64,000 bases of DNA. Origin: Tubiluchus corallicola. Its lineage: Eukaryota > Priapulida > Priapulimorpha > Priapulimorphida > Tubiluchidae. The translations under genes and the position numbers were made by a program. Positions 16,801 through 19,800 of the stretch are shown piece by piece. The stretch's first letter is position 1. Each line of letters starts with the position of its first letter. The stretch spans positions 94,501 through 158,500 of the forward strand of contig JAQGDQ010000322.1 in the NCBI GenBank assembly GCA_030141605.1, in the 5' to 3' direction. Below the pieces are notes generated by a model. The model was given only the letters and a program-made list of their open reading frames with translations. It was not told the origin of the DNA and did not search any database.

Positions 16801-19800
16801 AGGGATGAGAATGACAAATTGCAAAAAACTCTCACACAGGCCGAGGGTTATGGTGCAATTTTGTGAACATAGAGAGCCTCTAAGTGGACTTAAAATATCA
16901 GTTAGCTTGTATCATGCATAATTTAAAATACCCAACTATCAAGGATACATGATACTTAATTGTCTCAAAAATGCCTAAGTGCTGGCCGCTCCTGTGCAAA
17001 AGTATATAAAAACTGTCTGCAATTGACTCAAATAACTCCTCACAATTGATTCTATATTTTTATACATAGAGATGTACACGTCGTTACACTAATGTACGTG
17101 ATGTAAACAAAGTGACAGCCTGCCAACTAGCGGTCAGCTTGTGAAATAATGCACTGGATCCGTAAACATTTTCTCAACGAATTCACGCGATTTACAAAAA
17201 TGGCACTACTGGTCTTCCAAAAACTCGGAATTCCGTGTATCCGCGGAAAATTCTCATCCCTGAGTTATGCGATGTTTGAGAAAAATGAGAGGGTAAGTAC
17301 GTTTTACAAGATCTGTTCGAGATACGCAAGAACTCGAGTTAATCATAGTTTAATGTAGTAGCATAACCACCATATTTGTTCACAAGACAGGTGGTAAATA
17401 CGCAACAGAATGAGCTAAAATACTTACTGCACCCGAACCGCCCGATACGGTTTCACAATACGCTAGTTCCTTATCTCCGAATGTGATCACGTTCATACAA
17501 CCCTGAAAATAGCGAAGCCAAGCTTTATTTAAGAGAATATAACGTTAATGGTTACTTACCGCGCCCGAACCTCCGGCTACTGTTTCATAATATCCGGCTT
17601 CTTCGTCTCCAAATGTAATGTTATTCATGCATCCCTGTAAAGAGTTAAGTGAAGCCATGTACGTGAAGCCAGACACAGTGAAGCCATGTGCGTGAAGCCA
17701 TGTACATGAAGCCAGACACTGTGAAGCCATGTACGTGAAGCCAGACGTGCGGATTCACTGAAAACAGGCAGGCAACTTTTTCCATTTTATACCGATGTTT
17801 AAACGAGAGATGAGGGAATGCTTTGACTATTATCAAATTTTGAAATAAAACTTCTGAAAAAGGAAGGAAATGTAAAAATACGGGATCTGAATCAGCAAAA
17901 AATGAATCTAGCACTTTGTTGTTTGACCAACCCATGGAAACAATGTATGGGTTGATGTGCTTATAACTGTCTATAAGAATTGAATTAGGCCTATGATCAT
18001 TATAGAACAGTAGTCCAGTGTTCGTGGCATTTCTAATTCAAAGGTGCACAGTTCAAATCCTGGTACTGCCTCGACTTTTTCACATTTTCTTTTCTCAGAT
18101 GAATTAGATTTCAAAAAATAATTGTTGTACATTTATTCTTGTAATAGAAATCTTGAAATTATCATTAGGATTAATTAACACACACCTGAGAAGCTGCGCA
18201 GATCTTAAAAGCTTTGAATATCACGTCGACAATTCGCTGAGATGTGAGCACGTTTCCACCCACGACCGCTGCCGTCTCCGACGGATCCAATATGCATCCC
18301 CTCGGAATGAAAACTTGAACCGGAGTGAGGCATCCCTACGGAAAAGAATTACAGATTAAACAATTTTCTATGTAATTGCAAAAGTGAGGCTGCAATAGTT
18401 TCATCAAAAGATGAAAGGAAAGTGTAAACAGTGATATGAAACCGGATGCTTGACAGGCAATGAAAATTAAAATATGTCCAGTAAACCTTAGATCACATGT
18501 GTTTGTTTGTTTATCACAATGCATATGTGTTTGTTTACGTGTTTGTTTGTTTATCGCTATGCACATTATATGTTTGTTTATGTGTTTGTTTGTTTATCGC
18601 TATGCACATTATGTGCTTGTTTGTTTATCACTATGCACATTATGTGCTTGTTTGTTTATCACTATGCACATTATGTGTTTGTTTGTTTATCGCTATGCAC
18701 ATTATGTGTTTGTTTGTTTATCGCTATGCACATTATGTGTTTGTTTGTTTATCGCTATGCACATTGTGTTTGTTTGTTTATCGCTATGCATATTACGTGT
18801 TTGTTTGTTTATCGCTATGCACATTATGTGTTTGTTTGTTTATCGCTATGCACATTATGTGTTTGTTTGTTTATCGCTATGCACATTATGTGTTTGTTTG
18901 TTTATCGCTATGCACATTATGTGTTTGTTTGTTTATCGCTATGCACATTATGTGTTTGTTTGTTTATCGCTATGCACATTATGTGTTTGTTTGTTTATCG
19001 CTATGCACATTATGTGTTTGTTTGTTTATCGCTATGCACATTATGTGTTTGTTTGTTTATCGCTATGCACATTATGTGTTTGTTTGTTTATCGCTATGCA
19101 CATTATGTGTTTGTTTGTTTATCGCTATGCACATTATGTGTTTGTTTGTTTATCGCTATGCACATTATGTGTTTGTTTGTTTATCGCTATGCACATTATG
19201 TGTTTGTTTGTTTATCGCTATGCACATTATGTGTTTGTTTGTTTATCGCTATGCAATTGTGTTTGTTTTTGACATTGTTTGTTTGTTTATCGCTATGCAT
19301 TATGTGTTTGTTTGTTTATCGCTATGCACATTATGTTTGTTTGTTTGTTTATCGCTATGCACATTATGTGTTTGTTTGTTTATCGCTATGCACATTATGT
19401 GTTTGTTTGTTTATCGCTATGCACATTATGTGTTTGTTTGTTTATCGCTATGCACATTATGTGTTTGTTTGTTTATCGCTATGCACATTATGTGTTTGTT
19501 TGTTTATCGCTATGCACATTATGTGTTTGTTTGTTTATCGCTATGCACATTATGTGTTTGTTTGTTTATCACTATGCACATTATGTGTTTGTTTGTTTAT
19601 CGCTATGCACATTATGTGTTTGTTTGTTTATCGTTATGCACATTATGTGTTTGTTTGTTTATTGTTATGCACATTATGTGTTTGTTTGTTTATCGCTATG
19701 CACATTATGTGTTTGTTTGTTTATCACTATGCACATTATGTGTTTGTTTGTTTATTGTTATGCACATTATGTGTTTGTTTACGTGTTTGTTTGTTTATCG

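What the first reader, a model, noticed from the sequence alone, without database searches (positions are those of the whole stretch)
17428..17634. Tandem duplicated exon 27 in OPLAH: candidate mutually exclusive exons giving two 5-oxoprolinase isoforms
Two 75-nt exons, both phase 0 with intact acceptors and GTAAGTA donors, encode the same HyuB segment with 19 of 25 residues shared. I count 16 changed codons, 10 silent and 6 replacing, so both copies look maintained by selection. Both keep the Gly-rich end, but 27b changes GYYETVAGG to AYCETVSGG. The intron between them is only 57 nt, short enough that splicing 27a to 27b may be sterically blocked. I know of no described alternative form of this enzyme at this place.
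Basis: partly seen in the sequence, partly recalled or inferred. Interest (0 to 1): 0.88.

Follow-up and report, generated by a model that had tools for sequence, protein, structure and literature searches.

The report
Twin alternative exons in 5-oxoprolinase gene
An animal gene for the glutathione-recycling enzyme 5-oxoprolinase carries two old, still-preserved versions of one small exon that shapes the enzyme's catalytic half, so one gene may make two enzyme forms, but no RNA data were available to show it.

Summary
On the minus strand of an animal genome (343.5 Mb) lies an intact 5-oxoprolinase (OPLAH) gene, CDS about 57636 to 10650, the only one found in the assembly. Exon 27 is present twice: 27a at 17560-17634 and 27b at 17428-17502, both 75 nt, phase 0/0, with good splice sites and a 57-nt intron between. 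They differ at 23 of 75 bases. Silent sites are saturated (pS 0.82), yet only 6 of 25 residues differ (pN 0.15). Random change does not give this (0 to 1e-5 of runs), nor does a model with 27a constrained and 27b drifting (at most 0.0014). So 27b is old and selected, not debris. The 57-nt intron is the shortest in the preferred gene model and shorter than 50 introns sampled elsewhere: this fits steric mutual exclusion but does not prove it. The exon encodes one beta-hairpin near the substrate pocket. 27b keeps the residues aligned to pocket-lining ones but replaces two columns nearly invariant in 5-oxoprolinases (Asn5 to Val, Tyr16 to Cys). Best reading: mutually exclusive exons giving a canonical enzyme and a second form of altered activity or specificity; a new member of a known kind. 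No transcript or related animal genome could be examined.

The parts
10650..57636 (-). OPLAH (5-oxoprolinase) gene, start ATG to stop; HyuA part about 57636-34248, HyuB part about 27120-10650
   Evidence: spliced alignment to 5-oxoprolinases from bacterial records, no stop in the printed model; Pfam Hydantoinase_B hits exon by exon; start and stop
18186..18335 (-). exon 26, ends at a codon boundary ...CAASQ, donor CAG|GTGTGT
17635..18185 (-). intron 26, 551 nt; near its 3' end a short tandem array (14-nt unit) with repeated TTCAC
17560..17634 (-). exon 27a, 75 nt, phase 0/0, canonical 5-oxoprolinase sequence [25 protein letters not shown]
17503..17559 (-). 57-nt intron between 27a and 27b; only yUnAy match has its A 15 nt from the 5' splice site
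17428..17502 (-). exon 27b, 75 nt, phase 0/0, variant sequence [25 protein letters not shown]
15007..17427 (-). intron after 27b, 2421 nt
14924..15006 (-). exon 28, starts at a codon boundary [27 protein letters not shown]

Best explanation
27a and 27b are an old tandem duplication of one OPLAH exon, used as alternatives: pre-mRNA is spliced 26-27a-28 or 26-27b-28, and the 57-nt intron makes joining 27a to 27b inefficient because a 5' splice site and branch point in it lie too close together. Each choice swaps one beta-hairpin and the start of the glycine-rich turn in the HyuB half, near the metal and substrate site. The 27a form is the ordinary 5-oxoprolinase. The 27b form keeps the fold and the residues aligned with pocket-lining positions, but loses two residues almost fixed in 5-oxoprolinases, so it probably has changed substrate preference or lower activity. 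Shown: duplication, age, selection on both, intact signals, short intron, place in the fold by alignment. Inferred: expression of 27b, mutual exclusion and its cause, the change in activity.
For: Duplicate architecture of same length and phase. pS 0.82 (saturated) against pN 0.15; of four sets of 100,000 neutral simulations, three had no run and one had 1e-5 of runs with 6 or fewer replacements and no stop. With 27a constrained and 27b free, at most 0.00135 of 40,000 runs at any of 10 divergence times match the data. Splice sites intact; on a crude matrix 27a and 27b acceptors share the top score with four others of 31, and the donors rank 2nd and 19th of 31 (which also scored the gene's two outer ends, not splice sites). 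The intron is 57 nt; in the preferred model the next shortest of 31 is 96, and 50 introns estimated from myosin and chaperonin matches of the same genome have none at or below 70, lowest 100; seven more estimates gave six of 156 or longer and one 11-nt gap too short to be an intron. A donor to branch point distance under 50 is the criterion used for steric exclusion (PMC5740500, passages; PMC7969005, passages). All 46 aligned 5-oxoprolinases have this segment once, 25 residues long. The exon maps to residues 363-396 of caprolactamase CapB, a stretch holding four listed pocket residues, and to one predicted hairpin.
Against: No transcript was seen. 27b breaks two columns kept in 45 of 46 relatives each, which could mean a weakened exon. 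Pocket-aligned positions 3, 6, 15 and 18 are the same in both exons, so a change of specificity does not follow directly. Double inclusion and skipping keep frame, so no nonsense decay would enforce exclusion. A human 56-nt intron with 27 nt from 5' splice site to branch site is spliced. No pairing between the introns beyond shuffles. Other versions of the gene model put a 69-nt intron and a 36-nt intron (reference L037) in poorly matched stretches; I take these for artefacts, but if real, 57 nt would not be exceptional.
Confidence: 0.72

Rival explanations
1. Both exons are real, but splicing is not exclusive: 27b is an extra cassette, sometimes added after 27a, giving a protein with a duplicated 25-residue hairpin.
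For: Both phase 0/0, so 26-27a-27b-28 stays in frame. An intron of 56 nt is spliced in human cells.
Against: 46 of 46 aligned 5-oxoprolinases have a single copy of this segment; an added hairpin near the active site would probably misfold (inference). The intron is shorter than the 50 sampled in this genome.
Confidence: 0.12
2. 27b was a functional alternative for most of its history but has lost its role recently in this lineage, and is now rarely included.
For: Replacements at two near-invariant columns, where 27a keeps the family residue.
Against: Open frame, good splice sites and a clear excess of silent change. Replacements are not enriched at conserved columns: 2 of 6 fall in the 15 of 25 columns kept in at least 43 of 46, where 3.6 would be expected (P of 2 or fewer 0.15; columns listed).
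Confidence: 0.1
3. 27b is a regulatory exon: its inclusion makes an inactive 5-oxoprolinase that lowers enzyme output, instead of a second enzyme.
For: Loss of Asn5 and Tyr16, almost fixed in the class.
Against: No stop or frameshift is introduced, and silent saturation with 19 of 25 residues kept argues that the protein sequence itself matters.
Confidence: 0.06

Closest known systems
coq-2 exons 6a/6e (nematodes, annelids, molluscs)
   Same: Two equal-length mutually exclusive exons in a metabolic enzyme, remodelling its core; one ancestral-like, one variant (PMC7434440, passages)
   Different: There the effect is shown by removing the exon in C. elegans and by RNA-seq; here neither expression nor activity is known. 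Different enzyme; homology not tested and none expected.
OGDH exons 4a/4b (vertebrates)
   Same: Old exon duplication in a metabolic enzyme; [quoted passage not shown]
   Different: That intron is 118-131 nt in birds and mammals and its branch points are mapped; here the intron is 57 nt and branch points are only motif matches.
CYP4F3 splice forms (human)
   Same: Splice choice changes substrate preference of an enzyme (cited in PMC7434440, passage; the CYP4F3 papers were not seen)
   Different: Different family; tissue-specific choice known there.
Caprolactamase CapB and N-methylhydantoinase
   Same: Homologous HyuB part, metal ligands of CapB conserved in this gene
   Different: They have other residues at positions 5 and 16; separate enzymes, not splice forms.

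Membership tests
Mutually exclusive exons from tandem exon duplication | Neighbouring homologous exons of same length and reading phase | tested here: met
   75 nt each, phase 0/0, 19 of 25 residues
Mutually exclusive exons from tandem exon duplication | Both copies have intact splice signals and are under coding constraint | tested here: met
   that the signals work is inferred from sequence
Mutually exclusive exons from tandem exon duplication | One and only one copy in each mRNA | not testable with these tools
   no transcripts available; no second copy or retrocopy found in the assembly
Mutually exclusive exons from tandem exon duplication | Donor to branch point under 50 nt in the intervening intron (steric type, one of several mechanisms) | tested here: inconclusive
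   57-nt intron, so any usual branch point is under 50 nt; sole yUnAy match 15 nt away, but such an intron can be spliced in man
Mutually exclusive exons from tandem exon duplication | Exclusion by frameshift and nonsense decay, or by U2/U12 mismatch (optional mechanisms) | tested here: not met
   75 is a multiple of 3; both donors are GTAAGT, U2-like
Mutually exclusive exons from tandem exon duplication | Competing intron base pairing (optional mechanism) | tested here: not met
   57-nt intron against intron 26: 17 of 40 shuffles as strong; against the intron after 27b: 36 of 40; end of intron 26 against the latter: 6 of 8
5-oxoprolinase (OPLAH) | HyuA-HyuB fusion with conserved metal ligands of HyuB | tested here: met
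   one gene model covers both; residues aligned to CapB D41, H99, D102, H124 are D, H, D, H
5-oxoprolinase (OPLAH), 27a form | Class-typical Asn and Tyr at exon positions 5 and 16 | tested here: met
   45 of 46 relatives have each; 27a has both
5-oxoprolinase (OPLAH), 27b form | Class-typical Asn and Tyr at exon positions 5 and 16 | tested here: not met
   27b has Val and Cys; activity on 5-oxoproline not testable here

The most novel reading that the evidence does not exclude
One gene encodes two enzymes: with 27a a 5-oxoprolinase, with 27b an ATP-dependent hydrolase for a different lactam or hydantoin-like substrate, switched by tissue or condition as coq-2 is. 5-oxoprolinase would then be a splice-tuned step of glutathione recycling in some animals.
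Probability: 0.22. Interest if true: 0.78.

Novelty: new member of a known kind. Interest (0 to 1): 0.52.

Why it matters
Splice choices that rebuild the catalytic part of a metabolic enzyme are few; the authors of the coq-2 paper call such a clear change of enzyme specificity rare (passage). 5-oxoprolinase closes the gamma-glutamyl cycle (general knowledge), and no alternative form at this place was found in the literature searches made. Two natural, long-selected versions of one hairpin give a ready pair for asking what the almost fixed Asn and Tyr do in the HyuB active region, and whether a housekeeping enzyme is tuned by splicing.

Tried and rejected
Recent or dead duplication: rejected by silent saturation and both neutral tests. 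Assembly duplicate or minisatellite unit: rejected; the copies are 69% identical and the pair occurs once. Second OPLAH gene or retrocopy that might show an isoform: all 7 PF02538 matches reported lie in this gene. Other duplicated exons in OPLAH: 28 exons (27a and 27b among them; exons 14, 15, 22 and the last were not tested) were searched against the window; apart from the pair and the exon 12 minisatellite no hit was below E 0.05, the best being E 0.061 for exon 20. RNA docking: no signal. U2/U12 mismatch and nonsense decay: excluded by sequence. Related animal genomes: none reachable; viral contigs gave no relative, and the genome collection holds bacteria and archaea only. COX1 search to name the animal found nothing; that it is an animal rests on Wnt genes. 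A codon library run timed out and was redone by hand. One search printed its model and then ended in an error when saving. Fold search against solved structures was unavailable (104) or busy (105), so the placement in the fold rests on sequence alignment and the predicted hairpin.

Alignment caution: the CapB match is remote. Position 16 to L387 and 18 to S389 hold in both alignments made, but V386 falls on position 15 in one and in a gap in the other.

Full report
What is there. The window lies in an assembly of 343.5 Mb in 2344 contigs, of an animal by its Wnt genes. On the minus strand a 5-oxoprolinase gene runs from ATG at 57636 to a stop ending at 10650. I found its exons by a spliced alignment script against 5-oxoprolinases from bacterial records, two from plasmids and the rest from the genome collection; the printed model has no internal stop. 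Identity to the three best relatives is 56-58%. Exons 11, 15 and 22 differ between versions, and the script inserted one zero-length exon, an artefact. Pfam finds Hydantoinase_B exon by exon, and all seven matches of that family reported for the assembly lie in this gene.

The duplicated exon. Exon 26 ends and exon 28 begins at a codon boundary. Between them stand two 75-nt exons, both phase 0/0, 27a (17634-17560) and 27b (17502-17428), 57 nt apart. They share 19 of 25 residues and 52 of 75 bases. Each finds the other in the window at E 2.9e-10.

Age and selection. Silent differences are saturated (pS 0.82), replacement differences are few (pN 0.15), and 15 of 23 differences are at third positions. 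Random placement of 23 changes, starting from either copy and with two transition weights, gave 6 or fewer replacements without a stop in 0, 0, 0 and 0.00001 of 100,000 runs each. The harder test allows 27a to be fully constrained and 27b to drift, both starting from the 27a sequence: over ten divergence times, 40,000 runs each, the best match to the data was 0.00135. Both copies have therefore, most likely, been read as protein for a long time. This rests on 25 codons, and no animal outgroup was available.

Which copy is canonical. Of 82 loci (L001-L082) 49 had an open frame of 1000 or more residues with the search motif; 3 (L006, L007, L039) were dropped for length or a missing motif, leaving 46. 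All 46 have this segment once, 25 residues long. Asn at position 5 and Tyr at position 16 are each kept in 45 of 46. 27a has both; 27b has Val and Cys. At position 14 the family has Gln (41) or Gly (5); 27a has Gly, 27b Ala. At position 20 both Ala (5) and Ser (8) occur, with Cys commonest (28). Column 11 varies widely; column 13 is mostly Tyr (34) and neither copy matches. Of 22 HyuB genes found in nine of those genomes, ten are 5-oxoprolinase-like, most of them in genomes whose gene was already counted, and all ten have Asn and Tyr; of the 12 others one has Asn and one has Tyr, in both cases L109, which is loosely aligned; CapB and N-methylhydantoinase have neither. So 27b departs at residues that mark the 5-oxoprolinase class. 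Its six replacements as a set are not significantly depleted at conserved columns (2 of 6 in 15 of 25; P 0.15).

Place in the enzyme. By alignment of ten sequences the exon corresponds to CapB residues 363-396. The caprolactamase paper (PMC8453981; abstract and sections 2.7, 2.8 and 2.10 read) lists pocket-lining residues, four of which, Ala365, Ile368, Val386 and Ser389, fall in this stretch at exon positions 3, 6, 15 and 18. All four positions are identical in 27a and 27b. A model of the HyuB part of the relative L013 (34 sequences, mean pLDDT 87; block means 78, 78 and 90 over this stretch) shows strand 367-372, a turn, strand 377-382 and then the glycine-rich stretch; the exon is residues 364-388, so it encodes one hairpin. 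A second-shell effect on the pocket is plausible; a direct change of pocket residues is not shown.

Splicing. In the preferred model the intron of 57 nt is the shortest of 31 in the gene (next 96 and 178). Other versions have a 69-nt intron and a 36-nt one (reference L037) in poorly matched stretches, which I take for artefacts. Fifty intron lengths estimated from neighbouring myosin and chaperonin matches of the same genome (hand-picked rows) run from about 100 up, median 510, none at or below 70; the chainable rows left out add six of 156 nt or longer and one gap of about 11 nt that cannot be an intron. The estimates carry errors of tens of bases. Inside the 57 nt the only yUnAy match has its adenine 15 nt from the donor; a looser CTTAAAT lies near 31 (by eye). 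In OGDH, branch points 25-41 nt from the donor enforce exclusion (PMC7969005, abstract and passages), and under 50 was the cut used for human exons, met by 57 clusters (9%) (PMC5740500, passages). Against a strict block, a human 56-nt intron with 27 nt between 5' splice site and branch site is spliced with the help of SPF45 (PMC8363638, passages). No base pairing between the introns beats shuffles. Both exons being multiples of three, nothing in the reading frame enforces exclusion.

Known or new. About 10% of animal genes are said to contain tandemly duplicated exons (PMC9013439, passages, citing earlier work), so the type is ordinary. Searches for OPLAH with mutually exclusive exons (none), 5-oxoprolinase with mutually exclusive (seven papers, listing only, none about this by title and start of abstract) and oxoprolinase with alternatively spliced and exon (one paper, listing only) gave no report of this; OPLAH and oxoprolinase do not occur in the main texts of three papers on human and tandem exons (PMC5740500, PMC9013439, PMC9741552; term searches). 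Most subscription papers and all supplements were out of reach. The closest parallel in kind is coq-2 (PMC7434440, passages).

Verdict. Whether 27b makes a second working enzyme is the open and testable question.

Noticed in passing
40385-41572 (-): A 79-nt minisatellite at the start of intron 12 whose unit holds the last 51 nt of OPLAH exon 12 and its donor GTACAG: 15 copies counting the exon's own, so 15 near-identical donors stand in a row; 79 is not a multiple of 3.
   Followed up: partly
30169-31346 (-): A 392-residue open frame with ankyrin repeats inside the 7.1-kb OPLAH intron that separates the HyuA and HyuB parts, same strand.
   Followed up: partly
17648-17743: A small tandem array ends just before the 27a acceptor; its unit carries TGGCTTCAC on the gene's strand, and a like stretch (TGGCTTCGCT) stands shortly before the 27b acceptor.
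   Followed up: partly
whole window: Very rich in minisatellites; 70 rows by Tandem Repeats Finder, many overlapping.
   Followed up: no
own assembly G000: One Wnt gene appears with the same scores and layout on 13 contigs, and several single-frame chaperonin genes (some GroEL-like by score) stand beside exon-by-exon ones: signs of redundant contigs and perhaps microbial sequence (not checked further).
   Followed up: no
L003: A contig filed under Methylococcales encodes a 5-oxoprolinase 57% identical to the animal one, 78% over the exon used as query; it may be misbinned or transferred.
   Followed up: no
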